Source of the DNA: an uncultured Bacteroidota bacterium | GTDB taxonomy: Bacteria > Bacteroidota > Bacteroidia > Chitinophagales > LD1 | NCBI GenBank assembly: GCA_903917755.1 | Contig: CAIXBT010000237.1 | Location: 1-39,799, forward strand | Direction of reading: 5' to 3' | Length of the DNA stretch: 39,799 nucleotides | Translations under genes and position numbers: made by a program | The notes under the pieces: generated by a model | What the model was told of the DNA's origin: nothing | What the model saw: the letters and a program-made list of their open reading frames with translations, nothing else | The model's database searches: none | Shown here: piece after piece, positions 3,665-24,476 of the stretch | Layout of the letters: each line of letters starts with the position of its first letter | Numbering within the stretch: the stretch's first letter is position 1

Positions 3665-6600
3665 ATGAGACTTATCATTACGTCCCTGTTGGTATGCTTT
3701 TTGTTCAGTGCGGAAGTCCGTGCTATTTCATTTTGCGACAGTTTGAGCACGGCTCTGACTAATTACAATTCCCAATATCCGGGAAACGGATCTTTGGATA
3801 ATTTGGTTTGGTCAATGGATAATGCTTTCGGATGGACCCACTATGACAGCACTAGTGGCTATTATGTGTATAGTGATGGGGTTTATTGGTATGGACAGAT
3901 AACTGCATGCGGTCTCAGCTTTCCAAGCTTCATCAATTGTGCCCATGCTGATAGCGTACTGAATGCATTTTATATTCAATACCCGCAGTGGCGATACAAT
4001 TGCGCACCTGCCATCTGGGTATCGTACCTAAATAATCATGGTGGCGCTAACGGATATTGGAATTCAGAACAAAACTGGAAACTGCTGCTTGGTATCTGTA
4101 GCATACCTTACCCCGCCATAGATACCCCTCTTACAAAATGCGACAGTCTTGCAGATGCGGTCGGGCTTTACTCGATCTCGTATCCCGTTGGAAGTGACTA
4201 CAACACGTTCACGAATACGCTGAACGGTCTGTGGGGTTATTCAAATACTCTTAACGATTGGCGCATGGCATATGCAGCCTGTGGTGACAGTTTCCCGCTG
4301 TTTATAAACTGCGCTCTTGCCGACACGGTCATGAATCATTTTTATTCAGCTTATCCTCAGTACACCAGCCATGCACCGGCTTTTCTTTGGTCAAACTACC
4401 TGAATCAGAATAGTCCGACCCCGACCGGCTATATGTATTATTCAACACAGGACTGGATATCATTGCTGGACTGGTGCGGTATCGGCTACCCTGCACCTGA
4501 CACCTTGGCAAATTTTTGCGACAGTCTTAAAGTTGCGGATTCCTTGTATATACACCTATACCCGGCAGGTGCCTCACCCAATCAGTTTATAAATCTGATA
4601 AACAGTGAACTTGGCACCTACAATTCTTATACGGGCTGGGCCAGTATCATGGGCGGCTGCGGCATTGCCTGTCCGCACACGATAGACTGTGCGCGCGCAG
4701 ACAGTTTTATGAGGGCTTTTAAGTCAGCTAATCCTCTAGACTCAAATCATTGCGCTCCGTTTCTGTGGGTTAATTACCTAAACTCAAATAATCTGCAAGG
4801 GGGCAATTACTGGTATTCAGCACAGGACTGGATGTCCATGCTTAATTGTTGCGGTATTAACTACCCCGCACCCGATAGTCTTAGTAGCTACTGCGACAGT
4901 CTGCAAGCAGCAGTTAGTGTTTACAATAACACGTACCCTTGCGGGAGCCAGTCTTGGGTTTATCTAAATTTCATGAACGAGACGTTCAACTCCTGGGGCT
5001 ATGACTCTTCGGGGAGATGGATAAACAACAGTCTGCAATCATGGTACAGCCAAACGAACGATTGCGGTTTTGGTTGCCCCCATGTGATCAATTGCAGCTT
5101 TGAGGATAGCGTGATGAACGCATTCCATACGGCATATCCGCAATATGCAGTTCATGCTCCCACATTCGTTTGGACAGCATATCTAAACACGGCAAAAAGC
5201 GGAGTATCATACACCACACAGGACTGGACGACGCTGCTTGGCTGCTGCAGTGTCCCCTTGCCTGCACCGGATACCATGAATAATTTCTGCGATAGTATTC
5301 AAACCGTAGTGAACTTGTTCAATCAGCAATACCCCAACGGTACTAACGAATGGACTTTCACTGGACTGTTATATAATTATCTGGGCGGATGGCATTATGA
5401 TTCCACGGCCGCTCAATACATCAACTACACAGACCTGACGTGGTTTACGAAAATAAAAAGCTGCAACATCAGCTGTCCAAATATCGTCAATTGCTCAATA
5501 GTTGGCAGCGCGATGGATTCATTTAGAGCGCAGTACCCTCAGTATGACAGTGCTGCACCTTCGGCAGTATGGACGGATTATTTGAACGAAAAGAATGCCG
5601 GTTCTGATAATAATGGCAATCAGTGGACCTTCCAACCCAGGCAGTGGGTGGGGCTTTTAGTTTGCTGTAATGTCATGCCACCCTCCCCTGTAGCCCTGGC
5701 TTCACATTGTGACACCATCAATACGATATTGGATAATATACCTGGAATAGGAACAGTTAATCTAAACTCCGACTATATTCTTAACGCGCTCAATAGTAAC
5801 TTTGACTGGCAGCATTATGATAGCGCGTCAGGCCTGAATGTTCCGAACACTTTCTCTTACTGGTACTCACAATTGCAGCAATGTGGAGACAGTTGCAGAC
5901 AGATCGTAAGCTGCGACAGCATCAACGCCGCCATAAGAGAGTTAAGCTCTTTCCAACTCAGTCACGATAGTACAGTTACATACCCACTCCCATTCGTAGA
6001 GGCATATCTGGGTTTCAAGTTTGGGAACTACCAATTTGATCAGGCTACATGGGGTTCGATACTAAGGTGCTGCAATCCTCCTTCTGTCAATTACAACGAC
6101 ACCGTTTTAAGCCATTGTGATTCCACCCAACTTGTCCGGTTCGCACTTCAGTATCAGGTTCAGACAGATTCTTGCTTGCCTATCTGGTTGTATAACTTCC
6201 TATTGAGCCAAGACGGCGATACGGCAAACATGTATCAGCTGTGCAGCGAATTAGTAAGTTGTAATATGCAATGTTTGCCCTATTGTTCCGGTAGTTTAGC
6301 CTCTAGCTGTGACTCGGTCAGTTCTGTCTATTATGTATATCAGCAAGTACTTGCATCAGAGCCTGGACATCCAAGCGGTGATGCGGGTTTACTTCAAACA
6401 GCATATCTTATTCTTTACGGACAGTCACTATCATCCGATCAGATCATACCAAAAATTATCGCCTGTGATTCTAACGCTTGTGTTGCAGTCGAAATTCCCC
6501 AATCGCAGGCGGAACAATATTTCAGCTCATACAGTGGCTGTATACCGATACGGGTCTTCACAACTTTAATGAACGCTACCAGCGGCTTGAATTTTAATTA

Positions 6601-9600
6601 CGCGAAGTGGAGCAGTATGTTCGATCATTGCGGAAACGCACGTCCGATTGTATGCGATAGTGCATATTCGCTATGCGATTCTGTTATGGAAGCGTATGGC
6701 TTGACCAATATAATTATTGCTGCAAACGGTGGGACAAGCGATTCTGCCGGAATGCTGTCAATGGTATTTTCCGCATATTTCGGGAGGAGCATATCTGCGT
6801 TAAATGCCAGCATCATGCAGTCCATGTGCAACCCTTTGTGCGACTCATTTGTAGCAAGTGTTTCCGTCAATAATCAGAATATATGTGCCGGAACAACAGC
6901 AACACTTACCGCTACTGGCGGACCGGGTTACCTCTGGAGCACAAGCGATACGACGGCAAGCATACATGAAACCACAGCCGGGACCTATAGCGTGACAATA
7001 ACCAATTCATCAGCTTGCACCGCATCCGTGAGCGGGAATGTTACAGTCACTTCCATACCGTATCCTCCGGCAGCGCCTGTGTTCCAGTCAATTTGCAGTG
7101 ATTCCACCTTCAATTTTGTCTTTGATGATGTGAGCGCTTGGGGCGATAATCTGCAATGGTCATATAACAGCAGCTTTGTTCCGGCAAATACAGAGTACGC
7201 AGAATACGACTCTTATATAATTGACCCCTTCACCATAACTGTACCGGGCGACAGTTCTGTCACGATATGGTTCCGGACCATAACAAGCCCGGCAGGGTGT
7301 CTTAGCGACAGTGTTTCTGTCATCCTTGAAACTAACCGCCTTCCTATTCAGAGGAATATTTACGCTGTCGATACTCTTGTTCCGAGGGATTCAACCACCA
7401 CCATCGTAGTGCCTAATTCACAAACTGGAATCCTGTATACCTTGCAGATCGGTTACACAATAGTGGCCTCGGCAAGCGGGACTGGAGATACCATTTATCT
7501 CGTCACGCCACCGATAGACACTCCTACCATAATAGATGTCTATTCCACAAATACGGGAAGCGGATGCCAACGTCACTTATATGCTGGCAGGTACAGCAGT
7601 TACAGTCGGGTCGACAGCATCTCTGACATATACGTCACGGTTTCCCATTCGGCGCCTGTACTTTCCTGTCAGGCGGATACGCTTTATCTGTCGGTCACTA
7701 ATAATACTTCCTCTACGGTCGATTCTGTTGTCCTTAATTTGCTCATCAATAACCCGGACTTCTCTTGTGCGAACACGGCTATTAACAGCCATTTGGGCAA
7801 CAGGGCACATACACCCCCATCAGTGAATGTAAGCGGCAGTTCATACAAGATAGGTTTAGATTCTATACCTGCTGATTCTACCTGGTACTTTTCAATGGTC
7901 ATGTTCACCGCATGCGCCGAGATACCGAATTCTGAACCCGTATCCGGCGGTGTCGTTGTGCCAAAAAATGATACTTCCAACAGGATATATGTCTGGGTAA
8001 GCGGGCCTAATGATACAGTTGGGGTGAACAACCAAGCCAATGTAACAGCAATCAACCCATACCATATAACGCTGGATTCAATTCTGTATCCCATTTTTGA
8101 CGTGGACCTCCCCAATACCACAGGCTTTGATTCGGTCGGCGGCATTTATACATATCAATCAGGTTCCCTGAACAGGTATAACGGATGTGTTGCACTGGGA
8201 GATACATTTACACGCAGATCCTATTTCATCAATAAAGGCTCAGCCATTTTTACGGGCGGCATCAACATCAGGGATAGCATGACATGTGACGGGCTAAGCC
8301 TGATTAGGGCGAAAATATATTACAGCAATAAAACAGTTATCCTGTCATCTGCTGACAGCGCCAAGCTGCTTGGCAGGGGTTATGAGCATAATTTAAGCGA
8401 TGACGGCGATACGGTCGGTATCTCATCCGACCTTATCCTCGAAGAAACTTTTGTGGTAAGAGGGTGCTTGGGGGCAGCATGTGAATCAAAAATAATCCTG
8501 AAATGGGGCTGTGATACCACCAACCTGTGTAAGATACAAATACCTACGCCATATACTTATGTAACATACAATTGCAAACAACCTGTATTCCTCATATCGC
8601 GAATTTTACCTGTCAGCAATTATAATGGCAATCCGGATGCGTATTGGGACAGCACCTGCATTAATACTTCTACTAAGTGGGAGTTTGAGGTGCAAAATGC
8701 GGATACGTCATCCACTACAACCCTTAATAATGTGCATGTGGTATTAAACAAGGGGGTGCTGGGCTCATATAGCTTTATCAACTGGTCGAGTTTCCGCATG
8801 GGATTCAGAGATTCAATATACGGGAATGCGCTGCCTGCAAGTGATTCCCTATCTTACAAGCTCACCTTGCTGACATCGCATATTTCAGACAGCCTGATAC
8901 ATTATACTTCTGCCTGCCTCAGTAACCCCAATATCGACAGCCCCATACTATCCCTAGATATGCGGATCGCAAGACTTAAACGCGGAGACAAATTCTTCTT
9001 CTCTTTTTATACTTACCAGTGCTGCCCTTCAGATTCAGAACTGTTCAACAATCCTTTTAGGATGAATCACTGGACCCTCAATGCCTATGGTTTCTATTGC
9101 GGTGAAACCGGTGGTGACTCAGTCGTTGCCAAACCACTTGATAAACCCACAGCAAATCCGCCGTATTATGCCTCCACTATTTTCCATGACAGTGATCAGC
9201 CCAATGCGATCAGTCCTTATGCCCATAATCAGGGCAATGACTTTGGCCTGACGCAAGTGTTTACACCGAGCCTTTCCACAATGAATAAGGACGAAACTGA
9301 TACTTTCTGTATTAGGAACCTTGCGCTTAATTCAGTTGCTTTTACGGATTACCAGTTGCTTTTCCAGCACGGGTACAATAATGGTGCTTCAGGGCCGTCG
9401 TTCAATCTGATAGTTGACATCAGCACACAAACTGGGTTATCAGTAAATCCCGCTGGTCGTGTACATATAAGCGGACATGGCTATACCTGGACAGGGACTG
9501 TTTTATCGAGTAATGCTTTTTTTACCGAAGTGGCTTTTGATATTCATACTCTGGGGCTCGTCGATCCAGCTATTTTAGGACCAAACGGTGCCTTAGCCTT

Positions 9601-12600
9601 CCAATCCTTTTTTGACGGCTCATACTTATGTTTCCCGCTGATCAGCTATTGCCCTGCTATGCAGCCCACCGTTGGAGTGCAGATACGCACTTACATTGAG
9701 CCGAAACTAAGCCTTGGATGCGACACCTGCAAGATACCACTTGCAAAAGTAGGTACAGGTATTCACGTGCTGTGCCCCGGCTGCATCACTCCGGGCATAC
9801 AGATTGTGGGGTCAAGCATCGAGCGGATGAATTTTGGCTTGCCCGACATCAACGATATTGGCTATGCCGATAATACTACCCCGATCACCCCTTTTAACTA
9901 TGCACAATTCGGCAACGTAAACAGAGGCATCGCTATGGTGGGTGATACCCTGAGAAGCTATACCATGGAAGATTTTGTAGATGGTAACGATACTTCGGGA
10001 TTTACTTATGCGGGATGGGACAGCTTCTGGACCGCGCATGGTGATAGTAATGCTTACTTCAAATACCTTTTCCGCTATGTCAATATGCCCTATTCACGGG
10101 ATACGGATATGAACCTCCGGCTTATCATGGATACGCTTTACTATACTCCGGCTGGCAGTTTGGTGCCCTATGTTATACCGCTTCCTATAACATCTAATTA
10201 TGCAGTACATAGCGGGGACAACTTCATATTCCGGCTGAACATAGACAGTCTACGCGATTTGCTAAATGACAGTACCATTTCATTTAAACCAGGGGACAAA
10301 TACAGGTTTTGCTCTTATTATGTGATCTGCGGTAATTTCTCTATTCCGGCGGGTTCGAATAACCTGCAATACGAGTGTACAGCAAATATATTGTCCTACT
10401 ATACCACTCCGTCCTATCCAGGATTTGTAATGCCAACTTATGAGGTCGGGGATTACTTTGCTGCAAACATGGGTACCTCCGGTGACATCAGCCATGACAG
10501 CATAGTCACACCGGAGACAAGCATCTATTACCTTTGTGTAGGAGCTGCACCGGTATTTTATGATTGTTATGTATCATACAATTCAAGATATAATAATTAT
10601 AGTGACTATAATAACGCCGAAACGCGGTGCGTGAAACCATTATATATGGGCATCTCAGCAGCGATACTCGGTCCCAATTCAGATCCTAGTAGTTATTATT
10701 TTGACAACTTCCCTTACGAGTTCCGGCCTATTCCAGGTCTGACTTCGGGTGCTGACATTGTCATTAACGATAGTACATCCCCTTATTCCTTTATGATCAA
10801 GTCCCTCGGTGGTTGCTATACAATGACTCCGAGCTATACCTATACAAAACTCTTTATCCATCCTAGTTCATCAGGAGGAGCAACACAGTTATCGATGGAT
10901 ACATTGACTTCAGGGTTTTACAGCAGAGCGGCGGCTCCCTATGAACGTTATTCTTTTCCATCACTCTACACGTATGCCAATGCTCTTAATGTTCCAGCTC
11001 CAAACAATTACCACGGTCCGCTCAGAATCGGGGATGAGTATTTTCAACAGAATATGCAGTTTCTTATAACAGCACCGGTATGCGCCGGATGCCCTGATAC
11101 TTTGTATGATAATACTGATCTTAAGTTTGAAGCCATAGTAGTGCCGTCTGTCTCTGCATGCAGTAATGTTACTGACACTTTTTTCAGTAATGCTTCTAAC
11201 TCAACACTAGGAGGAGGGCTGATCCTTCATAGGCCAAAGGCAGAGCTTTGGCCACAGCCACTCTCTGCCACACCTCTTGCAGATACAAGTTCCTTTATGA
11301 TCCCACAGGTGTTGAACATAACACAGGACCATCCCGATAACCTATATATCTATATCAATACTGCGAACATTCCGCCATGCCTGTCCATTGACAGCATTGT
11401 ATCCATTGACAGTGCCACTGGAAGTAACCACGATATACCCGTCTATGGAAAGGGAGTAAGACCAATTAATGTGGGAGGCTACCTGTTGTTTGATATAGGA
11501 TTCTCCCTTGCAGCAGGCAGCTACCAGAAAGTTCGCGACTCGATTTATTATAATGCTCAGGACTCACTTAAATTCTATTTCCATTGGACCTGCTGCCCCC
11601 CAAATTTTGACAGCGCCCTTTACCTGCACCTGCCATTCATGCTGAACTGGCAATGCGTCAATTTCCCGACCACACTGCCTGACAGTGCCTGCCATATTCC
11701 GGTGACTGACAACATACCACTGTTGATACAGCCTGCGGCCTTCGGCAATATTCCTGTAGTGATGCAGCCGGATACTTTCAGCAGTTGTGATACGCTCCAC
11801 TTCAGCGTCAGAATACAGTCCGTAGACTATGGGCCGATACATGGTATCACTAATATCCTGAACATGCCGCCGGGTCTGAATATAGTGCCGGGTAGCCTGA
11901 CGGTGAGTTACCAAAAAAACAATCATGATACAACCGTACACAGGACTTTATCCGGCGATAGCGTTTCCATACCGCCGATAGTTTTACATTTTCAGGATAC
12001 GATACTGCTCAAATTCTCCGCAGTGCCAACTTGTTCTTACGCGGGAGATGCGCCAACAGATATATTTTATGGAATCAGTTTCTGCGGTTCGCCTGTCAGC
12101 CCGGTCGTTGCTTTCCATTCGATGATAAACATTGGCAACCGTTGCGGTCCGTTCTTCAATCCCGCAACCGTCTCAAACCTGCCATGCTACGGCGATAGCA
12201 CGGGGCGGATATTTGTAAGCGCTTATGGCAGTGATACGATCTTTGATTTCTCCTGGCCGACAGGCATCGGATCAGTAGATACGGTTGCAAACAATTTTAC
12301 AGCGACTAATGTACATGCAGGTACTTATATTATTACTGTGACAGACCCAAAAAGGAACTGTTCCCAGAATGATACGGTTACCGTAACTCAGCCTGCCCTG
12401 CTGGGAGGTACGACGACCTTTGCCAATGTAGTTCCTGGCAACTGTTCCAATAATTACGCGACCGTTTACCCTTCCGGCGGGACGCCTGCTTATACTTTTC
12501 ATTGGAGCGGCGGATCACTGACTACCTCCGCAACCGATAGCGGCATGATAGGCGGCATGGTCTATATTGTCACGGTGACAGACATTAATGGCTGCACTGC

Positions 12601-15600
12601 AACGTTGAGGGATACGATGCCGACCCCTGTGCCCGTATCTATTACAGGAGATTCGTCGATATGCAGCGGTTCAACTGCAACATTAAACGCGGGTCAGGGA
12701 TTTAGCTCCTATGCCTGGTCGACAAATGCCAATACACAGGAAATATATCCTAACAGTTCAGGGACCTATTATGTTACTGTTTCCTTAAACAGTTGCCAGG
12801 CATCCGATTCATTCAAGCTAAGGGTATTTCCTGTCCCAAGTCCGATTGTAACTATAGCCGGGTATGACCTTTGCTCAAATGACACTGCCATTGAGTATGT
12901 TTTTGGGGTTTCCCACACACTCACTGTGCCCACTTACACATTAAGTCAGAGTAATTGTACTCAGGTCTGTTCGGGAAGCCTGTCAAGGATTGCTGTTTTT
13001 CTCTCTAATCCGGGGGACGCTGACTCAGTGAGTGTTGTCGGTGGAACTGCAACACTAATCTCTTCGCTTTCTTCAGATACCCTTATCTATGACATCCGCT
13101 GGGGTGCTGCCGGGCAGGGCAGTATTTTAGTCAATGAGATCAGCGCTGCCGGATGCCATACCCCTGTTATATTTTGCATCGATATATTACCTTCCCCTGT
13201 GGCAGGTTTTGGGATCATAGGCATGAATAATGCTGACACGGTCAATGTGTGCGTTAACAGCACGATCAATTTCAGTGATTCGTCTTTCATAGATTCAGCG
13301 AATATAAGTGCTGGCTCTGCTAATATTACATGGCACTGGAATTTCGGGGATGATTCCACTTCCACCCAGCAATCACCGACACACATTTATTCTGTGCCTG
13401 GCACCTATACTGTCTTACTGACAGCAAGTTCATCCTGCGGTTGTAAGGGTACGGACTCAATGATAGTGGTTGTCAGTGATGCTTCCGCAATGGATATAGA
13501 ATGTCCTTCTGTCCTGTGCAGCGGCGGTTCAGCGACATACACGGCTGCCGGTTGCAATAATGTTACCTGGGGTGCCATAGGCGGCAAAATTACCAGCTAT
13601 ACAGGAAGTTCCGTGACCATTACATGGGATAGCGTGGGCGGCAGTGGCTTTGGATATGTTATTGACACACCGGTTAGTTGCGGCACCTGCCATGCACCAT
13701 CTTCGGTAAAGATACCGGTCATGACACAAAATGCACAGATAAACGGGCTGAGTACTATCTGCCCAAACATTCCGAATTACTATAGCCTTCCGCTTTGGCC
13801 CGGTGGTGTATATCACTGGTCCCTCGTGAATGGTTCACCGAACCCATCCGTTTCCATGCTTAGCCCTAATAATGACTACAATGTACTTGTGAAAGCCGCT
13901 ACCTATGGGACTTTCACATTAAAGGTCAAATATACCGACCCCGTTGCAGGTTGCAGTGACTCATCCTATATCACCGTCAGGGTAACGGGTAATGTGGTTG
14001 ATTCTGCCAGTCCGCTTGTGGGATGTACGGGAAATATAGTAACGTTTACACTGAGCAATAGTACAATCTCCAAGTGGAGCATAGTCAGTCCTACCGGGGG
14101 CATCGATACATTTGGGGGTATAGCCTCCAATTCAGTCACCTATACCCCTGACACAGCGGGTAATTATACAGTTAACCTGATAAGTCCCAATGTTTGTGTA
14201 AGCGCACCGCTGATCTATCATGTGGATCAGACACCAACATTGAGGGGATCAGTCATTAAAGGCCCTGACAGCGTCTGTCGCAATACTCCTTATACCTATC
14301 AGGACAGTATACCAGCACCGACTGGAGTACGATATATCTGGTCGCTTCCAAATGTAAGTGATGGTGTAATAGTCGGGTCCAATACGGGGAACAATGTAAT
14401 TGTTAAGTGGACAAATACTGCCTATGCGGCTACATGTATGCTTAAATTGAATGCTGTGTCCACTCTGGATACGAACTGCGTAGATACTGCTTCAAAGACT
14501 TTTATTGTGCACATCATCGAACCTGATTCTCTTTTCACATATCCGTTGACTGTTTGTGCTAACAGCGTATCAAGTGCTGTGAGCGCGGTATCACATGTAC
14601 AGGATTATTATACATGGTCGTTTACCCCATCTAATCTTGCATCCTGTGTAAGCGGTTACGACCACAGCATTCATCCGCTTATTCAGTTCAATAACGTGAC
14701 GACACCTACTACTGTGACTATCACGCTAACAGTGACCCGTTGCAATAAAACGGTGTTCAAGAATAATACCGTAACCATCATACCTGTGCCTACCGTATCA
14801 GTGACGGCTGATACGCCATTCTGCCCGCTTAGTACCAGTGTTTTTGTGGCTCATCCATCAGCAGCATGGCCTCATACAACTTACACGTGGGCACTGAGTA
14901 ATGGTGATACTGTCAACACAGGCGTCAGTACAACGCTGAATTATGTTTTCCTTGATACTGGTTCATATTGGGTGCGCGTTACAGCACACTTTGCAGATAC
15001 CTGTATAGGCAGTATCACATCTGCAAACGACAGCTTCCTGATCCGTCGTTGCGGGTCGGGTATAGGCGGATCAAGTGGCACAAGCGGCGGAACAGGCGGA
15101 ACAAGTGGCGGCGGAAGCCCCTGCACAATTACTTTCGGTACTCCGGTCATCTATGTGAACCCATGTAATGACAGTGTATCAGTCAGCGATACCTACTCAC
15201 CATCAGGTACTGTCCTGTCGCAGTCCTGGGCGCTTGACTCTGCGCGATATTTTCTGGTAGGCACTCCTACTATGACGACAATCACTTCCGGGTCTGCTTA
15301 TCACTTCCGGGTCAATCACTCCGGTCACTACCCGCTCATATATACGGTGACGCTTGTGGTAGCAGGTGATACTATGACTTGCTCTGCGCTTATCGATGTA
15401 CTTGTTCCACTCCACGTAGCATACAGCTATAAGGTAGAATGCAACAGCGGCAATAATGGTTATGTCCTGCACCTGATGGACAATTCCGATTATGTTGGGA
15501 CAGCCCCGATATTCCAATGGGGTAGTGTTCAATCTATTGCAGGTCTGCCAGCCAGTGGGGCGTCTGTGACCACCGGCGATATGACGCAGTTCTATTATCA

Positions 15601-17623
15601 AATGTATCACAATGTTATAGAAAGCCCTTTCAGCTGTCAGGTGAGGTTTAGCGTGCTAACACCAACATTCCCGACTGCTGCATTCACTTATATCGATACG
15701 CCGCTTTCGGCAGGGTTTAACCGCCGAACAATTTGCGAAGGCTTCTCGATCAGGTTGCAACCTACGCAACTACAAAACCCGCTCTGGACCTACCACTGGC
15801 AAGATCATCATGATGGAACTGATATTATTTATTACAATCCGGCTAAGGAATATAAATTTAGTGATGTTAATCATCCCGGTCAGAACCCTCAATCAATTAC
15901 ACTTACAGTCACAGATATCTATGGCTGTAGTAATGTAAAATCTGATACCAATTTTCTTATTACTGAGAATCAGTTAGCAGGCTATGTTGGGCCATTAGCC
16001 AACTTGGCACAACCTGAAAATGCAGACTATTTGTGTCCAAGCGGCGGGTCGTTTAACTTCCAGTATATTGTGACTGGTGGTGGTAGTGCTACCATGTGGA
16101 ATTGGTACAATGCAGCCACCCCGTATCTGAACAGAGGGCATCTTGGATCTGCACCTATATCTGGGCCAGATGGCAGGTATTTATGTATTGTTTCTGATAA
16201 TAATGGCTGTCAGAATATATCCAAACCAGCCGGTGTGATACAAACCTTGCCTATGCCACCTGTTATTATCACCGGTCCTCAGAGATATTGTGCGGGAGAT
16301 ACCGTAGTCCTTACCGCTACATTAGTAGATGGCATGAGCTATAGCTGGAGCATGCCCGGTTACACCTATGCCGGAGGCAATGTATGGAGTATCCCTAGCT
16401 TGGCAGCGGGTAGCTATACAGTCACGTTGAACTATACTTATACCTTTGCAAATTCGGGGACACCTCCTAAAACATGCAATCAGAGCACTACTTTTAGTTT
16501 CAGGGTAGATTCTATGCCAATAGTTGTGGCGGTGATCGGCAGTGTCACTTGCAGCCCATATACCGTGAACCTCAATGCTTATGGTACTTTATCTACTGGC
16601 TACTCATGGAGCAATCAGGCTATTACCCAAAACATTCAGGTGTCGTCCGGTGGTGACTATCGTGTCTGGCTTACATCCGGTCTCTGTAAGGCACATTATG
16701 ATGTACAGGTTCCTGATGATCCTTCGCTCCTGATACAGTACGCACCATACGGATGCTATACATATGGTTGCAGGGCCATCGATTCGGCAGGGGTGGAACT
16801 GACCGGGCCGCCTAATACTATCTTTGCCCACTGGTCCTGGAACGTCAGCGGTAGCCCCATACAGTCCGGTATCAATAGCTCTGTAACACCATACATAGCC
16901 CACTATGCGGGTGACTATTCCCTGACCCTGTCTGAGGACATAAGCGGCTCGTACTATTGCGCCGCTACCTCGCCACTAATGCAGGTAGCAGCTTCTCCTG
17001 TACCCTGCCCTGTGCTCTGCGCGATTGGTGCGTCAAGTAGAATAATCACCTGTACCGGTGATAGCAATATAGAAATCAGGGTAACTAACGGCTCCTATGC
17101 CTATGATACATACAACCTGACCAGCCCATCTGGTAATTTCGTCGGGGTTACGCCACCGCAGATCGGTCCGCCGGGACATTATACCTATATCTTTGCCACT
17201 TTTGTGCCCAACCTGGGTGTGAGCGGCAGTATATTTGTGGTGATAACGGTAGTAGATTCATCAGGAAGTTGTCAGGATACTCTGCATATAAACCTGATGG
17301 ACTGCAAGTATGAAAAATCAAAACCAGTAAAGGATAGTACAGTTCTCGGCAAGATATTGCTGATGCCAAACCCCGCCTCGGATCTTGTGAAAGTAGTTTA
17401 CAGTACAGGTCCGACAAACGACCCGCTGCCGGTTGGAGAAACGCTAACCTTATCGATCACGAACGTATCGGGACAACTGATAGAACAGCAGGCGCTCAGT
17501 AATATATCAGGTATGGTAACTATCAATGTATCTGCTATGAAAGCAGGGGCATACTTTGTAACGCTGAGCAAAAACCATAGTCCTGTAACAACAGATAAGC
17601 TGGAAGTACTATCGAACAAGTAA
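3665..17623 (+). CDS. Giant T9SS-secreted adhesin with tandem Cys-rich N-terminal repeats
   Basis: A 4,652-residue surface protein. Residues 1-20 form a signal peptide (cut near VRA-IS). Residues ~24-1,060 are tandem Cys-rich modules beginning CDSL or INCAxADS. From ~1,060 there are Ig-like segments with the pattern CxGxTATLTA...YxWS...GTYxVT, and a long stretch (about 1,200-2,830) of unrecognised domains rich in Cys, Tyr, Asn and Asp. SprB-like repeats (CYGDSTG...AGTYIITVTD) lie at ~2,835-2,990. A PKD domain (WHWNFGDDSTST...PGTYTVLLTAS) lies at ~3,215-3,265, a Gly/Ser/Thr linker at ~3,795-3,820, and more Ig-like modules follow. The last ~95 residues are a T9SS sorting tail (LMPNPASDLVKV...GAYFVTLSKN). 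Such proteins usually serve adhesion or gliding; the ligand is unknown. The frame is uninterrupted over 14 kb, arguing for selection. A strong terminator follows. Confidence 0.9.
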   Translation: MRLIITSLLVCFLFSAEVRAISFCDSLSTALTNYNSQYPGNGSLDNLVWSMDNAFGWTHYDSTSGYYVYSDGVYWYGQITACGLSFPSFINCAHADSVLNAFYIQYPQWRYNCAPAIWVSYLNNHGGANGYWNSEQNWKLLLGICSIPYPAIDTPLTKCDSLADAVGLYSISYPVGSDYNTFTNTLNGLWGYSNTLNDWRMAYAACGDSFPLFINCALADTVMNHFYSAYPQYTSHAPAFLWSNYLNQNSPTPTGYMYYSTQDWISLLDWCGIGYPAPDTLANFCDSLKVADSLYIHLYPAGASPNQFINLINSELGTYNSYTGWASIMGGCGIACPHTIDCARADSFMRAFKSANPLDSNHCAPFLWVNYLNSNNLQGGNYWYSAQDWMSMLNCCGINYPAPDSLSSYCDSLQAAVSVYNNTYPCGSQSWVYLNFMNETFNSWGYDSSGRWINNSLQSWYSQTNDCGFGCPHVINCSFEDSVMNAFHTAYPQYAVHAPTFVWTAYLNTAKSGVSYTTQDWTTLLGCCSVPLPAPDTMNNFCDSIQTVVNLFNQQYPNGTNEWTFTGLLYNYLGGWHYDSTAAQYINYTDLTWFTKIKSCNISCPNIVNCSIVGSAMDSFRAQYPQYDSAAPSAVWTDYLNEKNAGSDNNGNQWTFQPRQWVGLLVCCNVMPPSPVALASHCDTINTILDNIPGIGTVNLNSDYILNALNSNFDWQHYDSASGLNVPNTFSYWYSQLQQCGDSCRQIVSCDSINAAIRELSSFQLSHDSTVTYPLPFVEAYLGFKFGNYQFDQATWGSILRCCNPPSVNYNDTVLSHCDSTQLVRFALQYQVQTDSCLPIWLYNFLLSQDGDTANMYQLCSELVSCNMQCLPYCSGSLASSCDSVSSVYYVYQQVLASEPGHPSGDAGLLQTAYLILYGQSLSSDQIIPKIIACDSNACVAVEIPQSQAEQYFSSYSGCIPIRVFTTLMNATSGLNFNYAKWSSMFDHCGNARPIVCDSAYSLCDSVMEAYGLTNIIIAANGGTSDSAGMLSMVFSAYFGRSISALNASIMQSMCNPLCDSFVASVSVNNQNICAGTTATLTATGGPGYLWSTSDTTASIHETTAGTYSVTITNSSACTASVSGNVTVTSIPYPPAAPVFQSICSDSTFNFVFDDVSAWGDNLQWSYNSSFVPANTEYAEYDSYIIDPFTITVPGDSSVTIWFRTITSPAGCLSDSVSVILETNRLPIQRNIYAVDTLVPRDSTTTIVVPNSQTGILYTLQIGYTIVASASGTGDTIYLVTPPIDTPTIIDVYSTNTGSGCQRHLYAGRYSSYSRVDSISDIYVTVSHSAPVLSCQADTLYLSVTNNTSSTVDSVVLNLLINNPDFSCANTAINSHLGNRAHTPPSVNVSGSSYKIGLDSIPADSTWYFSMVMFTACAEIPNSEPVSGGVVVPKNDTSNRIYVWVSGPNDTVGVNNQANVTAINPYHITLDSILYPIFDVDLPNTTGFDSVGGIYTYQSGSLNRYNGCVALGDTFTRRSYFINKGSAIFTGGINIRDSMTCDGLSLIRAKIYYSNKTVILSSADSAKLLGRGYEHNLSDDGDTVGISSDLILEETFVVRGCLGAACESKIILKWGCDTTNLCKIQIPTPYTYVTYNCKQPVFLISRILPVSNYNGNPDAYWDSTCINTSTKWEFEVQNADTSSTTTLNNVHVVLNKGVLGSYSFINWSSFRMGFRDSIYGNALPASDSLSYKLTLLTSHISDSLIHYTSACLSNPNIDSPILSLDMRIARLKRGDKFFFSFYTYQCCPSDSELFNNPFRMNHWTLNAYGFYCGETGGDSVVAKPLDKPTANPPYYASTIFHDSDQPNAISPYAHNQGNDFGLTQVFTPSLSTMNKDETDTFCIRNLALNSVAFTDYQLLFQHGYNNGASGPSFNLIVDISTQTGLSVNPAGRVHISGHGYTWTGTVLSSNAFFTEVAFDIHTLGLVDPAILGPNGALAFQSFFDGSYLCFPLISYCPAMQPTVGVQIRTYIEPKLSLGCDTCKIPLAKVGTGIHVLCPGCITPGIQIVGSSIERMNFGLPDINDIGYADNTTPITPFNYAQFGNVNRGIAMVGDTLRSYTMEDFVDGNDTSGFTYAGWDSFWTAHGDSNAYFKYLFRYVNMPYSRDTDMNLRLIMDTLYYTPAGSLVPYVIPLPITSNYAVHSGDNFIFRLNIDSLRDLLNDSTISFKPGDKYRFCSYYVICGNFSIPAGSNNLQYECTANILSYYTTPSYPGFVMPTYEVGDYFAANMGTSGDISHDSIVTPETSIYYLCVGAAPVFYDCYVSYNSRYNNYSDYNNAETRCVKPLYMGISAAILGPNSDPSSYYFDNFPYEFRPIPGLTSGADIVINDSTSPYSFMIKSLGGCYTMTPSYTYTKLFIHPSSSGGATQLSMDTLTSGFYSRAAAPYERYSFPSLYTYANALNVPAPNNYHGPLRIGDEYFQQNMQFLITAPVCAGCPDTLYDNTDLKFEAIVVPSVSACSNVTDTFFSNASNSTLGGGLILHRPKAELWPQPLSATPLADTSSFMIPQVLNITQDHPDNLYIYINTANIPPCLSIDSIVSIDSATGSNHDIPVYGKGVRPINVGGYLLFDIGFSLAAGSYQKVRDSIYYNAQDSLKFYFHWTCCPPNFDSALYLHLPFMLNWQCVNFPTTLPDSACHIPVTDNIPLLIQPAAFGNIPVVMQPDTFSSCDTLHFSVRIQSVDYGPIHGITNILNMPPGLNIVPGSLTVSYQKNNHDTTVHRTLSGDSVSIPPIVLHFQDTILLKFSAVPTCSYAGDAPTDIFYGISFCGSPVSPVVAFHSMINIGNRCGPFFNPATVSNLPCYGDSTGRIFVSAYGSDTIFDFSWPTGIGSVDTVANNFTATNVHAGTYIITVTDPKRNCSQNDTVTVTQPALLGGTTTFANVVPGNCSNNYATVYPSGGTPAYTFHWSGGSLTTSATDSGMIGGMVYIVTVTDINGCTATLRDTMPTPVPVSITGDSSICSGSTATLNAGQGFSSYAWSTNANTQEIYPNSSGTYYVTVSLNSCQASDSFKLRVFPVPSPIVTIAGYDLCSNDTAIEYVFGVSHTLTVPTYTLSQSNCTQVCSGSLSRIAVFLSNPGDADSVSVVGGTATLISSLSSDTLIYDIRWGAAGQGSILVNEISAAGCHTPVIFCIDILPSPVAGFGIIGMNNADTVNVCVNSTINFSDSSFIDSANISAGSANITWHWNFGDDSTSTQQSPTHIYSVPGTYTVLLTASSSCGCKGTDSMIVVVSDASAMDIECPSVLCSGGSATYTAAGCNNVTWGAIGGKITSYTGSSVTITWDSVGGSGFGYVIDTPVSCGTCHAPSSVKIPVMTQNAQINGLSTICPNIPNYYSLPLWPGGVYHWSLVNGSPNPSVSMLSPNNDYNVLVKAATYGTFTLKVKYTDPVAGCSDSSYITVRVTGNVVDSASPLVGCTGNIVTFTLSNSTISKWSIVSPTGGIDTFGGIASNSVTYTPDTAGNYTVNLISPNVCVSAPLIYHVDQTPTLRGSVIKGPDSVCRNTPYTYQDSIPAPTGVRYIWSLPNVSDGVIVGSNTGNNVIVKWTNTAYAATCMLKLNAVSTLDTNCVDTASKTFIVHIIEPDSLFTYPLTVCANSVSSAVSAVSHVQDYYTWSFTPSNLASCVSGYDHSIHPLIQFNNVTTPTTVTITLTVTRCNKTVFKNNTVTIIPVPTVSVTADTPFCPLSTSVFVAHPSAAWPHTTYTWALSNGDTVNTGVSTTLNYVFLDTGSYWVRVTAHFADTCIGSITSANDSFLIRRCGSGIGGSSGTSGGTGGTSGGGSPCTITFGTPVIYVNPCNDSVSVSDTYSPSGTVLSQSWALDSARYFLVGTPTMTTITSGSAYHFRVNHSGHYPLIYTVTLVVAGDTMTCSALIDVLVPLHVAYSYKVECNSGNNGYVLHLMDNSDYVGTAPIFQWGSVQSIAGLPASGASVTTGDMTQFYYQMYHNVIESPFSCQVRFSVLTPTFPTAAFTYIDTPLSAGFNRRTICEGFSIRLQPTQLQNPLWTYHWQDHHDGTDIIYYNPAKEYKFSDVNHPGQNPQSITLTVTDIYGCSNVKSDTNFLITENQLAGYVGPLANLAQPENADYLCPSGGSFNFQYIVTGGGSATMWNWYNAATPYLNRGHLGSAPISGPDGRYLCIVSDNNGCQNISKPAGVIQTLPMPPVIITGPQRYCAGDTVVLTATLVDGMSYSWSMPGYTYAGGNVWSIPSLAAGSYTVTLNYTYTFANSGTPPKTCNQSTTFSFRVDSMPIVVAVIGSVTCSPYTVNLNAYGTLSTGYSWSNQAITQNIQVSSGGDYRVWLTSGLCKAHYDVQVPDDPSLLIQYAPYGCYTYGCRAIDSAGVELTGPPNTIFAHWSWNVSGSPIQSGINSSVTPYIAHYAGDYSLTLSEDISGSYYCAATSPLMQVAASPVPCPVLCAIGASSRIITCTGDSNIEIRVTNGSYAYDTYNLTSPSGNFVGVTPPQIGPPGHYTYIFATFVPNLGVSGSIFVVITVVDSSGSCQDTLHINLMDCKYEKSKPVKDSTVLGKILLMPNPASDLVKVVYSTGPTNDPLPVGETLTLSITNVSGQLIEQQALSNISGMVTINVSAMKAGAYFVTLSKNHSPVTTDKLEVLSNK
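3734..6850 (+). repeat. Tandem Cys-rich module array within the adhesin
   Basis: About 16-18 modules of roughly 55-70 residues alternate between two types. Type A begins CDSLxxAxxLYxxxYP and ends WxxxxxxCGxxCP. Type B begins INCAxADSVMNAFxxxYPQY, continues APxFLWxxYLN, and ends QDWxxLLxCCGIxYPAPD. An A+B pair spans ~130 residues. The first five pairs are clear; later copies (after nt ~5,700) are progressively divergent and shorter. A Cys near each module start and one or two near its end suggest disulphide-closed units. I do not recognise the family. Confidence 0.75.
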
Positions 17624-17670: not shown

Positions 17671-17710
17671 TAAAAATTTGCTTTATATTTAAATGATTCA
17701 ACTATTTTAT

Positions 17711-19786
17711 ATGAATGTTAAATTTTTATTTATAATACTTACAGTTTCTTCCCTATCTCTGTCGGCTCAGACGCAAAGCTGGCAGTGGGTGAAAGCAGGC
17801 GGAAGTAATAATGATGCCCAACCAAACGACCAACCAGCAGAATGCAAAATAGCAGGCTGTGATGCCAAAGGTAATGTATATGGTGTCGGAATGATCAATG
17901 GCTCGAATGTTGTGTTTGATACATTCAGTTGCCCCGGCATATACCCATCACAGGTTCCTGGAGATGTTTGGACTAATCCGGATATTTTGCTTTTCAGTTG
18001 TGATTGCTCTGGTAAAATGCGTTGGGCAAAGCACATAGGGGATCAGCTTAATCTAAGTGGGACAAATTATGGTGTAGCAACAGACCCAAGCGGCAATACA
18101 TACATAGCACGAACTTTTTATTATGGATATTGGGGAGGGTGCAATTCATTAACTGTTTATCTGGGAGATTCGATCATCAACTCCGTTCCTCCGAGCATTT
18201 GTCAGTCTTACCTCTGTTTGATCAAGTATGACAGCTTAGGTAAATTGGTTTGGTTCAAAAACCTTGAAAATGATACTGTACAACATACTTATACCCAGAC
18301 ATACGCTTACGGCCTTCGTATAGGCAGTTCTGGGAATTTGTGGGTAGAGTGTTCTTTAGATAGTAATTACGCTATTTCCACTAATCTTCATACAACTTTG
18401 AAAGGCCTGTATAATGTGGAGGTTGACCCTGTTTCAGGAGATATTTTAGGAGGCTATTATATCTGCAATAAAATATTTCAGGATGCATCGAGTTATCCGG
18501 ATACTTATTATGATCTTGATGAAAATGAAAACTATTATCAGTCTGGACAATTGAATGGAGATTTTGGTGCTGGAGGCGATACACTGATATTAGCCACTCA
18601 AAGAATCGCGCCTAACACAAATATCACCTATACTTTGCCTTATATATATTCCCTTGATAAAAATGGGAATTTCAGATATATCATTACAGACAAAGCATAT
18701 TCTATAAGCGGATTTGGTCCATGTAAATATGATTTGCCCACCCAAAGGTTAGTTGCGACATGGGGACTAGATACTATCGCTGTATATGGTAGAGATACTT
18801 TCAGGTATGATGAGAGCAAATTGTACGGCAATAGTGGCGTCACACCCGGACTATTCGCTATTGACCCGACCGGGAATATACTTTGGGCTAAATTTGTTAC
18901 ACAAGCCAATAAGTATTTGTATGGTATTTTTTCAGAAGCGCCAACTGCGTTTTATACTGATCATTTTCAAAATAATTGATTAATTATCTGTAATACTACG
19001 GATACATTATTCAATAAAGATACTGCCACTCTTGATCCTAACAATTTTACAAAAATAATCAGTAAAATCGATCAGAATGGCAACTTGATTGCCACTCATG
19101 TCGCCAATATGGGAGACATAGGCCAAGGGCTTAACATAGCTAATTATGGTGCCAAAGACTGGCGTGGTAATGTATACCTCGGCGGTACATTTTCCAATTT
19201 CATAGCTACCCCTGCCGATAGCGTGGTCAACACCGATCAGATGTCGGGCAATTTTTTCATAGCCAAGCTCGGTATCAGTGATTGCAGTTGCCCTCTGCCG
19301 GGAGCACAGTTTACACAAGTTGTACACGGAGATACAGTGTACTTCTATGGCAGCAGTGCCAACCACAGCGACAGCATACTGTGGCGCTTGGGTGATGGTG
19401 GAATATCAAGGTCCGATACGCTCTGGCATGTATACACCAATCATGACAGTACCTACAGTGTGACTGCCATAGCATACAGCGGCTGCGGCGTGGACAGCAT
19501 CACAAAACTGTTTACCGTCAACAGTCTTGGCATCAAGGCGATAGAACCTAACCGAACAAGTCTATATCCTAATCCTGCTACAGGTCCAATCTATCTTGAT
19601 GTATCAGGTGCTGCTACTATTGGGCTGGTTTATGCGAATGGTTCAAGTGTCTGGCAAACTCCTGTGCAAGTCAATCAGCAAGGGACCTATGTTTTTGACA
19701 TGAGCAAATACTCCTGTGCGATGTATTATTTCATCGTACAGTACACCAATGGAAAGACGGATGTGATGCAGGTAGTGAAGGACTGA
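17711..19786 (+). pseudogene. SBBP-type beta-propeller T9SS protein broken by an in-frame TGA
   Basis: One reading frame runs from 17711 to 19786, interrupted only by TGA at 18977-18979. The start at 17711 is chosen over 17693 because it lines up with the paralogue starting at 19801. The first part has a signal peptide (ending LSLSAQ) and beta-propeller (SBBP-like) strands such as AGCDAKGNVYGVG and YGVATDPSGNTYIA. After the stop, the same frame continues sensibly (LIICNTTDTLFNKD, then WRGNVYLGGTF). It goes on to a PKD-like segment and a T9SS sorting tail (LYPNPATGPIYLDVSG...). TGG to TGA at a Trp codon (FQNN-W-LIIC) is the simplest cause. TGA ends other genes here, so recoding is unlikely. 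Without the second half the product lacks its sorting tail. Confidence 0.7.
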
Positions 19787-21322: not shown

Positions 21323-22324
21323 TCAAAGATCAATGTCGTAGTCCATATCAGGTTCATCTATGTCATCCATAGTGTCATCCGTCTGATCTTCCTCTTTGTT
21401 TTCATCCTCCTTTTCGTCTTTGGGTTCTTCATATTTTGTTTCATCAAAGCTTCGTTCAATACTCATTTCATTTTCCAGTTCCACATCTTTTTCCTTTTTA
21501 TCAAGCTCATCTCTGAATACCTGGATTCCACGGATTGCTTGATCTCTTATATCCATCTCCCGGAGGTGCCTTTCATCGAAGCCAAGATGCGAGAAAGTAT
21601 GCTTCCGTTCTCCGCTCATGACCCCGCGCTCGGAGCCGTTTCGGGAGTATGTTTGTAAGCCCTGTTCACTGAGCCGGTGCATAAAGTCGGCTCTGCTAAG
21701 TGACTTGTTATAACAGGCTTCTATGGTTTTGCTTATGCGTTCCTTCTCCGAAGGAGCTTTTGTTCGTTTCTTTAACTGGTATTCTCGGTCTTTGATCTGC
21801 CGCGCTTTATCCTTTTGCTTCTTGCCATGCTTTACTAGGCTATTGGATAAAGCGGAATAACGCGCCATTTGATAAGCCTGTAGCTCTTTTTTGAATAAAG
21901 CAAAATCCTCTTTGGATATGCGAAGTGATCTTCCGGTCTGTATTTCCGTGCCGCTGAAGCAAAAGTGGATATGGATATGCGCCTTGTCATAGTGTGGCAC
22001 AGCAATACACATAGCATTTGGATTGCGAAGCTCAATATATTTGCGTGTCAGATCTTCGAGCATGGCTTTAGATATCTTACCTGTATCTAAATTCGAAATA
22101 GACATGATTTCATGATACAGCTTTACGGAGTTGGAGCGTTTGATCAGTCTGCCGGCCTCGTTAGCTTCAAAAGCCCTGACCCACTGGTCAGGGCTTGTTC
22201 CTTTAATGTTGTGTTTGATGACAAAGCTGTCAGCCTTTGTCATGCTGCCCTTCTGCTCCTTTAGAAAGTAGCTGATCAGCTGGCGGTATGTGGCTGTCTT
22301 GCGGGTCTTGGATTTTATAACCAT
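21323..22324 (-). CDS. Relaxase (mobilization nuclease)
   Basis: A 333-residue protein that nicks DNA at an origin of transfer. The metal-binding histidine cluster HIHIHFCFSG (H116, H118, H120) is motif III of Bacteroidota MobA-type relaxases. The N-terminal TYRQLISYF (Y13) carries the probable catalytic tyrosine, and LYHEIMS (H71) fits motif II. The last ~65 residues are extremely acidic (runs of Glu and Asp), a natural tail for interaction with a basic partner. It overlaps the accessory gene upstream by 95 bases in another frame, so the two are translationally linked. The family call is firm; the subfamily is not decided. Confidence 0.85.
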   Translation of the reverse strand: MVIKSKTRKTATYRQLISYFLKEQKGSMTKADSFVIKHNIKGTSPDQWVRAFEANEAGRLIKRSNSVKLYHEIMSISNLDTGKISKAMLEDLTRKYIELRNPNAMCIAVPHYDKAHIHIHFCFSGTEIQTGRSLRISKEDFALFKKELQAYQMARYSALSNSLVKHGKKQKDKARQIKDREYQLKKRTKAPSEKERISKTIEACYNKSLSRADFMHRLSEQGLQTYSRNGSERGVMSGERKHTFSHLGFDERHLREMDIRDQAIRGIQVFRDELDKKEKDVELENEMSIERSFDETKYEEPKDEKEDENKEEDQTDDTMDDIDEPDMDYDIDL

Positions 22325-22871
22325 AAGTGGAAAGAATGGATTTAAGAAGCAGTAAAGTGTTGGGATTGCGTCTAATGTTTTCCATGATCAGTTCTTTAAG
22401 GCTACGCGTCTGATTTAGTAAAGTATTGATGCGATTTTCAGTAATGGTCAAAATTGACTCCACATTCTCGTATGTCCGGCTTATGACAAGCCATCCTTTA
22501 CCTTCTTTCTGCCGGATGGCATCTAGTTGGTTATTGCACTGCTGTAATACCTGCAATATCTCGGACACAAGGCTGCGATGCGGGATAACAATTATTAGCG
22601 CCATATCTGCCCGGACACAGCTTCTGATATAGTCTTGCAGACCATACCCCTTTTCTTTGGCGTTTAAGCGAACATGGTTTATCTCGTCCGCAGGAAAAGC
22701 CACCGCTATTTCACGTTTCTGCACTGTCCGGCTCTTCTTTTTTCGGGCCTTATCATACTCTTTCCAATACTGTTTTTTAGTGGCTTCTATCAAAGCCTCA
22801 TCTTTGCTATCCAATACCCCGCGACTTTCTAAATACTGCAAGAGCCCTGATTGTTTAGGTATGCGTCTCAT
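22230..22871 (-). CDS. Relaxosome accessory protein (MobC/BmgB-like)
   Basis: A 213-residue basic protein between the coupling ATPase (4 bases upstream) and the relaxase (overlap of 95 bases). Residues ~50-90 (KREIAVAFPADEINHVRLNA, then GLQDYIRSCVRAD) fit the ribbon-helix-helix domain of plasmid mobilization accessory proteins. The first 50 residues are rich in Lys and Arg, and helices follow to the end. By family it would bind the origin of transfer and help the relaxase. The name is by position and pattern only. Confidence 0.7.
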   Translation of the reverse strand: MRRIPKQSGLLQYLESRGVLDSKDEALIEATKKQYWKEYDKARKKKSRTVQKREIAVAFPADEINHVRLNAKEKGYGLQDYIRSCVRADMALIIVIPHRSLVSEILQVLQQCNNQLDAIRQKEGKGWLVISRTYENVESILTITENRINTLLNQTRSLKELIMENIRRNPNTLLLLKSILSTYGYKIQDPQDSHIPPADQLLSKGAEGQHDKG

Positions 22872-22875
22872 AGGC

Positions 22876-24342
22876 TTACTGAACGAGTGCTACTTCCCCC
22901 TCTGATAAAGTACCTTTGATCTTAGGTGCCGGAATCTGTGAGCGGAGTTTTAAAAATGGATGTTTGTAAACGGGTGTCATGCGTAGAAGGATAGGTTTGT
23001 AATTGCCGCAGATAAATATGGCACGGTCTTTATCAAGGGTTCTGATCTCATCAGGTTTTTTCAGTTCCCTAATCTTTCTCCCTTTTTCGTCCGTGTACTC
23101 ATATTTTCCGAGCTGCGCTGAAAGTTCTGTAGCGGTGGCATGTGAGACACCTCCAAAGTACACCTTGCCATAAGTATTGGAGCGTATGCTTTCGGCTTGC
23201 TGTTTGCCATATACATCAACTATCTGTTGATAATCCTGACAAATAAGCATTAATCCACACTGATATTTTCTGATGTTGGAAATTATTACATTTGTATTTG
23301 GCATATACAGCGAGGAAAATTCATCAAGGATGTAATAAACAGGCAGGTCGGTCTTGCCCGGCAATGTTGACATCAGCACTTTGGATAGCTGCTCAAAGAA
23401 AAGTGATGTCACCGGACTATACACTGCCATATCTCCGACATGGCAGTGTATAAAGAGAGCGGTTTTGCGACTACGTATCTTATCAAGGTTGAGCGTATCA
23501 ACCGAAGTTACTTTTGCGACATCGGGATCGGTAAAGATTTGAAGTGCAGCTAAGCAGGTAGCCTGTATGCCTAGGCGCACCTTATCATCGAATGATAAAA
23601 AGCTTTTGTATTCATTGATGAGTTGAGCATTTCCCGTCTTGGCGATTACCTTGTCCACAAGCTTGTGATCGGCACTGAGCATTTGTACAAGGTGTCTCAC
23701 GTTGGCTAGGTTGCGGTATTGTATATCTTCCGAGAGCAAGGCTCTCATGAGCATGGTCATCAGGGTCACACTTTGCAGACTCCAGAAGGGGTCACCGGTA
23801 CCTTTGAGTGTATTGCGAACCAGCATATGAGCGATCTTATTACAATCACTTACCGACTCGATACGAGCCATTGGATTGTATCCATTGCTGACGGATGGTT
23901 TGGAGTAATTGACGGTGATGATCTCGTAACCTTTAGATTTCAGATAGCCGCTGGAACTCAGGTAGAGCTCAAAACTCGGATCATTAATGATAAGACTGCC
24001 TTCCAGTTCCAGTAAAGATGGTAAAACGCAACATTGGGTCTTACCAGAACCACTTGATCCGACAATTAAGGCATGCATCATACTGGCTTTGGTACTGAGC
24101 TTGCGTCTGCCGTCTATACAAAATCCATGATTGGAAGTGTTGAGTACTTCGTCAGGGCTGATGAATTCGGCGCGGTACTTATGATCCTTTTCAGACGAGG
24201 CCTCGATCACAAAGGTTAGTATTTGCGATGCAAAGTAGACGGTTTCCTGAATCGCAGGAATAAGGTATGCGCGTGAAAAGCGCATCACCTGATCCGCAAA
24301 TTCGATCAGTGATCTTTTGAGCTGAGTGATTTTTCTATCCAT
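22876..24342 (-). CDS. Type IV coupling ATPase (TraG/VirD4 family)
   Basis: A 488-residue protein from the ATG at 24342. The ORF is open 44 codons further upstream, but that part is a shadow of the 53-residue membrane protein in another frame and is low in hydrophobic residues. The Walker A motif GSSGSGKT is at about 96-103 and Walker B YYILDEFSS at about 336-344. The sequence LICQDYQQI and a FGGVSHATA-type stretch follow, as in VirD4/TraG/TraD proteins that dock relaxosomes to a secretion pore. Unusually, its own N-terminus (MDRKITQLKRSLIEF) has no clear two-span membrane anchor. The small gene it overlaps may supply one. Confidence 0.85.
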   Translation of the reverse strand: MDRKITQLKRSLIEFADQVMRFSRAYLIPAIQETVYFASQILTFVIEASSEKDHKYRAEFISPDEVLNTSNHGFCIDGRRKLSTKASMMHALIVGSSGSGKTQCCVLPSLLELEGSLIINDPSFELYLSSSGYLKSKGYEIITVNYSKPSVSNGYNPMARIESVSDCNKIAHMLVRNTLKGTGDPFWSLQSVTLMTMLMRALLSEDIQYRNLANVRHLVQMLSADHKLVDKVIAKTGNAQLINEYKSFLSFDDKVRLGIQATCLAALQIFTDPDVAKVTSVDTLNLDKIRSRKTALFIHCHVGDMAVYSPVTSLFFEQLSKVLMSTLPGKTDLPVYYILDEFSSLYMPNTNVIISNIRKYQCGLMLICQDYQQIVDVYGKQQAESIRSNTYGKVYFGGVSHATATELSAQLGKYEYTDEKGRKIRELKKPDEIRTLDKDRAIFICGNYKPILLRMTPVYKHPFLKLRSQIPAPKIKGTLSEGEVALVQ

Positions 24343-24467: not shown

Positions 24468-24476
24468 GTGGCATGG

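What the first reader, a model, noticed from the sequence alone, without database searches (positions are those of the whole stretch)
3734..6850. Unfamiliar tandem Cys-rich repeat domain in a giant T9SS adhesin
Seen: 16-18 modules of ~55-70 residues alternate between CDSLxxAxxLYxxxYP...CGxxCP and INCAxADSVMNAFxxxYPQY...LLxCCGIxYPAPD, decaying from N- to C-terminus. Known: Bacteroidota adhesins usually use Ig-like, PKD or SprB repeats, none of which look like this. Inference: a disulphide-stabilised stalk or ligand-binding array not described under a common family name, in an intact 4,652-residue protein.
Basis: partly seen in the sequence, partly recalled or inferred. Interest (0 to 1): 0.65.

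Follow-up and report, generated by a model that had tools for sequence, protein, structure and literature searches.

The report
Uncatalogued disulphide-linked three-helix repeat array
The start of a giant bacterial surface protein is built from about 16 copies of a small three-helix module apparently pinned by cysteines, which no domain library searched here names and which also turns up, in tandem, inside Rhs proteins of related bacteria, so it looks like a shared building block for reaching or gripping things outside the cell.

Summary
The repeat is real. The 4,652-aa ORF (3665-17623, +) begins with a signal peptide followed at once by 12 clear modules (6 A+B pairs, aa 22-810, 40-76 bits each) and a diverged but conserved block of about 4 more (aa 816-1065). 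A and B are variants of one module. No Pfam, NCBIfam or PDB match covers it. AlphaFold2 on the window's own six pairs gives three helices per module (pLDDT 87, pTM 0.75), with no significant PDB or viral fold match. The 'decay' is not decay: a same-genus relative (G023) aligns colinearly with aa 582-1073 at 32%. The main finding is kinship: window-only modules match, by profile-profile comparison (P=8e-9; shuffled controls far lower), tandem modules in 2,000-3,500-aa Rhs/YD proteins of Chitinophagaceae (Chitinophaga, Niastella), up to 9 copies between DUF6443 and the Rhs core. Cysteine co-loss there supports C1-C3 and C2-C4 disulphides; in the window and G023 the extra cysteines of A and B co-occur, suggesting an A-B disulphide. 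Best reading: a disulphide-clamped helical rod at the distal tip of a T9SS-exported surface protein, probably for binding. Function and disulphides are untested.

The parts
3665..3724 (+). Predicted signal peptide (MRLIITSLLVCFLFSAEVRA); the array starts about 3 residues after the likely cleavage site
   Evidence: Read from sequence; no signal-peptide program was available
3728..3931 (+). Module 1 (A)
   Evidence: 69.0 bits
3932..4120 (+). Module 2 (B)
   Evidence: 65.3 bits
4133..4303 (+). Module 3 (A)
   Evidence: 57.4 bits
4304..4498 (+). Module 4 (B)
   Evidence: 75.7 bits
4511..4681 (+). Module 5 (A); first half of the modelled pair
   Evidence: 60.1 bits; AlphaFold2 model, three helices
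4682..4873 (+). Module 6 (B); second half of the modelled pair
   Evidence: 71.6 bits; AlphaFold2 model, three helices
4886..5086 (+). Module 7 (A)
   Evidence: 75.2 bits
5087..5269 (+). Module 8 (B)
   Evidence: 65.8 bits
5282..5485 (+). Module 9 (A)
   Evidence: 74.9 bits
5486..5689 (+). Module 10 (B)
   Evidence: 71.1 bits
5702..5905 (+). Module 11 (A)
   Evidence: 67.7 bits
5906..6094 (+). Module 12 (B)
   Evidence: 40.0 bits
6110..6481 (+). Diverged modules 13 and 14 (aa 816-939), cysteine pattern by eye
   Evidence: No significant HMM score; colinear with G023 at 32-39% identity
6482..6664 (+). Module 15 (aa 940-1000)
   Evidence: 35.5 bits with the combined HMM, 14.7 bits with the Rhs-array HMM alone; 42% identical in G023
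6665..6859 (+). Diverged module 16 (aa 1001-1065)
   Evidence: Cysteine pattern by eye; 29% identical in G023
7628..12385 (+). Body of the protein (aa ~1322-2907) shared with large proteins of other genomes in the family that lack the array
   Evidence: tblastn E 5e-42 to 6e-34, 27-28% identity; no modules in the G024/G026 proteins
13292..13462 (+). PKD domain (aa 3210-3266)
   Evidence: PF18911 E 4.8e-15
17366..17599 (+). T9SS type A C-terminal sorting domain (aa 4568-4645)
   Evidence: PF18962 34.9 bits, cut-off 27; TIGR04183 25.2 bits, cut-off 23

Best explanation
The array is a tandem repeat of an uncatalogued ~55-70-residue module: three short helices with a cysteine at the start of helix 1 (C1) and at the end of helix 3 (C3), most likely disulphide-bonded to each other. 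An optional second pair (C2 before helix 2, C4 after C3) is used in the Rhs versions. In this protein modules are organised as A+B pairs; four of six pairs carry an extra Cys in A (C4) together with an extra Cys in B (the first of 'CC'), which probably bond A to B and stiffen the pair. After Sec export, folding and oxidation in the periplasm and export by the type IX system, the protein would be anchored at its C-terminus, so the array is the distal end, held out by the Ig/PKD-like body. The most likely job is a rigid, durable tip that contacts a surface or ligand. A homologous array lies between the DUF6443 region and the Rhs core of Chitinophagaceae Rhs proteins, so the module is a portable extracellular unit of this order. 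Shown: repeats, predicted fold, kinship by profile comparison, sorting domain. Inferred: disulphides, orientation, binding function.
For: Repeat statistics. Three helices per module at pLDDT 87.2/pTM 0.75 for a pair and the same pattern in a four-module model at 74.6. No named family. Window-only versus Rhs-only profiles: Prob 93.6, P=2e-7 and Prob 95.8, P=8e-9 against 88 Rhs array modules, best of 100 column-shuffled controls 14.5 versus score 38.8. Rhs identity of hosts by TIGR03696/TIGR01643/DUF6443; arrays of 8-9 modules in Rhs proteins. C1-C3 and C2-C4 co-occurrence, Fisher p 1e-3 and 3e-6, other pairings not significant. A/B extra-Cys co-occurrence in 4 of 6 window pairs and neither in the other 2, the same in G023 by reading its sequence. 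T9SS sorting domain.
Against: No ligand, no experiment. The Rhs modules in the co-occurrence test come from about 20 related proteins, so the p-values are too small. Several window cysteines have no obvious partner (C113, C363, C426). The direct HMM link from window to Rhs is weak (best 1e-3 per genome over 398 genomes, among spurious hits of similar score); the claim rests on profile-profile comparison. The Rhs-array profile itself does not detect the window protein in a whole-genome search.
Confidence: 0.55

Rival explanations
1. The array is only a mechanical spacer: modules add length and stiffness, and binding is done by other domains of the protein.
For: Tandem, variable-number, apparently disulphide-clamped repeats are typical of spacers (general knowledge); A+B pairs are regular; copy number differs between proteins (2 to 9 in Rhs proteins; about 16 here).
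Against: It lies at the mature N-terminus with nothing beyond it while the anchor is C-terminal, so there is no further tip for it to hold out; loop lengths and sequences between helices 2 and 3 vary strongly among modules.
Confidence: 0.25
2. The modules are a recognition or docking region shared with contact-dependent Rhs proteins: there they reach the target cell, and the T9SS protein uses them for kin or prey recognition.
For: Homologous arrays in Rhs proteins, some with varied C-terminal ends reading like enzymes (G700 carries an HEIGH motif near its end).
Against: None of the window neighbours with a Pfam match is toxin- or immunity-like (not a dedicated search); the role of the modules in Rhs proteins is itself unknown.
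Confidence: 0.15
3. The cysteines bind a metal rather than forming disulphides.
For: CC and CxxxC pairs occur near the end of helix 3.
Against: C1 and C3 tend to be lost together and C2 and C4 tend to be lost together, with no signal for the other pairings, as expected of two bonds rather than one four-ligand site; most window modules have only 2-3 Cys; envelope proteins of Bacteroidota do form disulphides (PMC12635249).
Confidence: 0.05
4. Window and Rhs modules resemble each other by convergence on a simple Cys-helix-helix-helix-Cys pattern, not by descent.
For: Pairwise identity is only 6-28%, and single-profile searches link them weakly.
Against: Profile-profile P=8e-9 over 53 columns with column-shuffled controls far below; shared specifics beyond Cys: F...YP after helix 1 and the YLN/YMN...G motif in helix 2; three module sets match each other.
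Confidence: 0.12

Closest known systems
Cys-helical modules in Chitinophagaceae Rhs/YD proteins (unnamed; hosts carry DUF6443, TIGR03696)
   Same: Same module length, C1...C3 frame, helix-2 Y-[LMF]-N motif, tandem arrangement; profile-profile P=8e-9
   Different: Rhs versions usually have four Cys and an 'F..YFN...GTxYsYxQI' signature, and sit mid-protein between DUF6443 and the Rhs core; the window version is N-terminal, paired A+B, mostly with 2-3 Cys, in a T9SS protein without an Rhs core
G023 same-genus array protein (L038)
   Same: Colinear relative of aa 582-1073, 32% identity over 512 aligned positions
   Different: After the array it ends within about 260 residues with no T9SS sorting domain seen; its N-terminus is cut by the contig end
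SprB repeat / PKD / Ig-like repeats of T9SS adhesins
   Same: Tandem extracellular repeats in large T9SS-exported proteins; PKD is present elsewhere in this protein
   Different: Those are beta-sandwich folds (general knowledge); this module is all-helical in the model and has no Pfam hit

Membership tests
T9SS type A exported protein (TIGR04183 / PF18962) | C-terminal sorting domain over curated cut-off | tested here: met
   25.2 bits vs 23 and 34.9 vs 27
T9SS type A exported protein (TIGR04183 / PF18962) | Sec signal peptide | tested here: inconclusive
   Typical n/h/c regions by eye; no predictor on hand
SprB repeat (PF13573), PKD, Ig-like repeats | Profile match over the modules | tested here: not met
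   No Pfam family at E<=1 for any of 12 modules
Cys-helical module family of Chitinophagaceae Rhs proteins | Homologous sequence profile with C1 and C3 | tested here: met
   Prob 95.8, P=8e-9, 53 columns, controls far below
Cys-helical module family of Chitinophagaceae Rhs proteins | Three-helix fold in both | tested here: inconclusive
   Modelled for the window copies only; no Rhs module was modelled
Cys-helical module family of Chitinophagaceae Rhs proteins | C1-C3 disulphide | not testable with these tools
   Only co-occurrence statistics; no coordinates, no experiment
Rhs/YD-repeat protein | Rhs core, YD repeats or DUF6443 in the same protein | tested here: not met
   No TIGR03696, TIGR01643 or DUF6443 match in P0001
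Known solved fold (PDB) | Significant structural match | tested here: inconclusive
   Foldseek best E=1.0; VIA-align best Z 4.6, generic helical arrangements

The most novel reading that the evidence does not exclude
A portable, disulphide-clamped three-helix recognition module of Chitinophagales, used in tandem both by Rhs contact-dependent, toxin-like proteins and by giant T9SS surface proteins, so that the two systems share one way of recognising targets.
Probability: 0.2. Interest if true: 0.65.

Novelty: new variant of a known kind. Interest (0 to 1): 0.45.

Why it matters
It defines a domain family that the libraries searched here lack, and it links two classes of very large exported proteins of Bacteroidota whose outer parts are mostly unannotated. 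An A+B pair is small enough (121 aa) to express and solve, so fold, disulphides and binding are directly testable.

Tried and rejected
Own genome: no other protein has the modules. Family-wide search: 2 of 30 genomes, one of them the own genome. Weak hits G083 and G020 were judged spurious (stop codons or partial cover); G030 and G304 look by eye like a TPR-type and a glycosyltransferase-type protein. Related T9SS giants G024 and G026 share the body but have no modules. Exact-peptide scans of genome and viral contigs and a plasmid tblastn found nothing. A phylum-wide search with the Rhs-array profile found nothing, in a sample where no member was known to match, so absence outside the order is not established. 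A PHROGs hit of 14.4 bits (E 0.038) was dropped as chance. Viral fold search: best E 0.6. Literature searches for DUF6443, Chitinophaga Rhs, and T9SS helical disulphide repeats found no description of the module; most subscription papers are not held. A four-module alignment with overlapping rows misregistered and was discarded.

Full report
What is there. The finding lies in one intact ORF, window 3665-17623 (+), 4,652 aa. It starts with a signal-peptide-like stretch and ends with a T9SS type A sorting domain above both curated cut-offs. The genome carries about 150 such sorting domains, so a giant T9SS protein is ordinary here.

The repeat. An HMM built from 12 aligned modules finds all 12 at 40-76 bits, contiguous from aa 22 to 810. 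These bits are partly by construction, so independent checks were made: a profile of Rhs modules alone, containing no window sequence, still scores module 15 at 14.7 bits and several others at 5-10 bits in register, while shuffled sequence reaches at most 4.0 bits. A and B share C1, W and C3 and are variants of one module. Aa 816-1065 holds about four more, of which only aa 947-994 scores clearly (35.5 bits with the combined profile).

Not decay. A same-genus genome, G023, encodes a protein on a 3.7-kb contig that aligns colinearly with aa 582-1073, 32% identity over 512 positions, E 9e-69. Identity in the supposed decay zone is 29-42% per segment, no lower than in modules 9-12 (30-36%). The C-terminal modules are diverged from the N-terminal ones but kept.

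Fold. AlphaFold2 on modules 5-6, using only the window's six pairs as alignment, gives pLDDT 87.2, pTM 0.75 and three helices per module. A four-module model repeats the pattern at lower confidence (74.6). Foldseek finds nothing significant in the PDB (best E 1.0) or in viral models (best E 0.6); VIA-align's best Z of 4.6 is a generic helical arrangement. None of this shows that the fold is new.

Relatives. In 398 genomes of the order the window-only profile gave two weak but similar hits inside Rhs-like proteins, G372 and G331. Adding them to the profile found one conserved site in 2,000-3,500-aa ORFs of 15 genomes of family f21, and a profile from an array in G321 found 23 of 246 genomes of that family, many with several tandem copies. 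Family f21 is Chitinophagaceae: G372 and G394 contigs have the lengths of Chitinophagaceae bacterium UBA1930 and Chitinophaga ginsengisoli contigs, and the same site was found in Chitinophaga, Niastella, Longitalea and Parafilimonas records. The five host proteins scanned whole are Rhs proteins by TIGR03696, TIGR01643 or DUF6443. Arrays of 8-9 modules lie between DUF6443 and the Rhs core. The link to the window does not rest on the iterated profile: a window-only profile against an Rhs-only profile of 88 distinct modules gives Prob 95.8 and P=8e-9, score 38.8, where 100 column-shuffled controls peak at 14.5; the single conserved Rhs site gives P=2e-7 and the G321 array P=9e-6.

Cysteines. In 67 well-covered Rhs modules C1 and C3 tend to be present or absent together (p 1e-3), and so do C2 and C4 (p 3e-6); the four other pairings show nothing. 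The modules come from related proteins, so the p-values are optimistic, but the contrast between pairings is informative. In the window, A modules 5, 7, 9 and 11 have an extra Cys (336, 471, 604, 744) and their B partners have CC (395/396, 527/528, 667/668, 802/803); the first two pairs have neither. G023 shows the same: its one complete A+B pair has both, the preceding pair neither (read). I infer an A-B disulphide. C113, C363 and C426 are left without a clear partner.

Mechanism. The array is at the mature N-terminus and the anchor at the C-terminus, so the array should be the far end. Homologues that share the body (aa ~1322-2907) have no array, and the G023 array is joined to a different C-terminus, so the array behaves as a portable cassette. 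Bacteroidota form disulphides in envelope proteins (PMC12635249). I therefore think it is a stiff, disulphide-clamped tip used for binding, with a plain spacer as the main rival. Binding is inferred only.

Novelty. No library searched here names the module, and the literature held here does not describe it, but curated families are incomplete and I could not search UniProt, InterPro or AlphaFold DB. I class it as a new variant of a known kind: an uncatalogued repeat domain doing a familiar type of job.

Noticed in passing
window 21323-24474 (-): MobA/VirD2-like relaxase next to a T4SS coupling protein (TraG/VirD4 type): a possible mobilisable element a few kb downstream of the giant gene.
   Followed up: no
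window 31025-32350 (+): Strong erythromycin esterase family match (PF05139, E 7e-115); could be a resistance or an unrelated hydrolase.
   Followed up: no
window 27780-29330 (+): GMC oxidoreductase family protein.
   Followed up: no
window 17693-18979 (+): 428-aa exported protein directly downstream of the giant gene, no Pfam match; by eye it resembles the propeller-like C-terminal part of the G026 protein (L037) and has no obvious sorting domain.
   Followed up: no
L038 1463-3700 (-): In G023 the array protein seems to lack a T9SS sorting domain and is followed by a 421-aa lipoprotein-like ORF.
   Followed up: partly
L039 (G372), L070 (G265): In these Rhs proteins a lectin-like stretch (by eye) is inserted between helix 1 and helix 2 of a Cys-helical module.
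   Followed up: no
L165 460-10008 (+): The G700 Rhs protein with 8 modules carries an HEIGH motif, metalloprotease-like, near its C-terminus.
   Followed up: no
G000 (whole genome): About 150 T9SS sorting domains and four Rhs core matches in the own genome; no protein other than the window's has detectable modules.
   Followed up: partly
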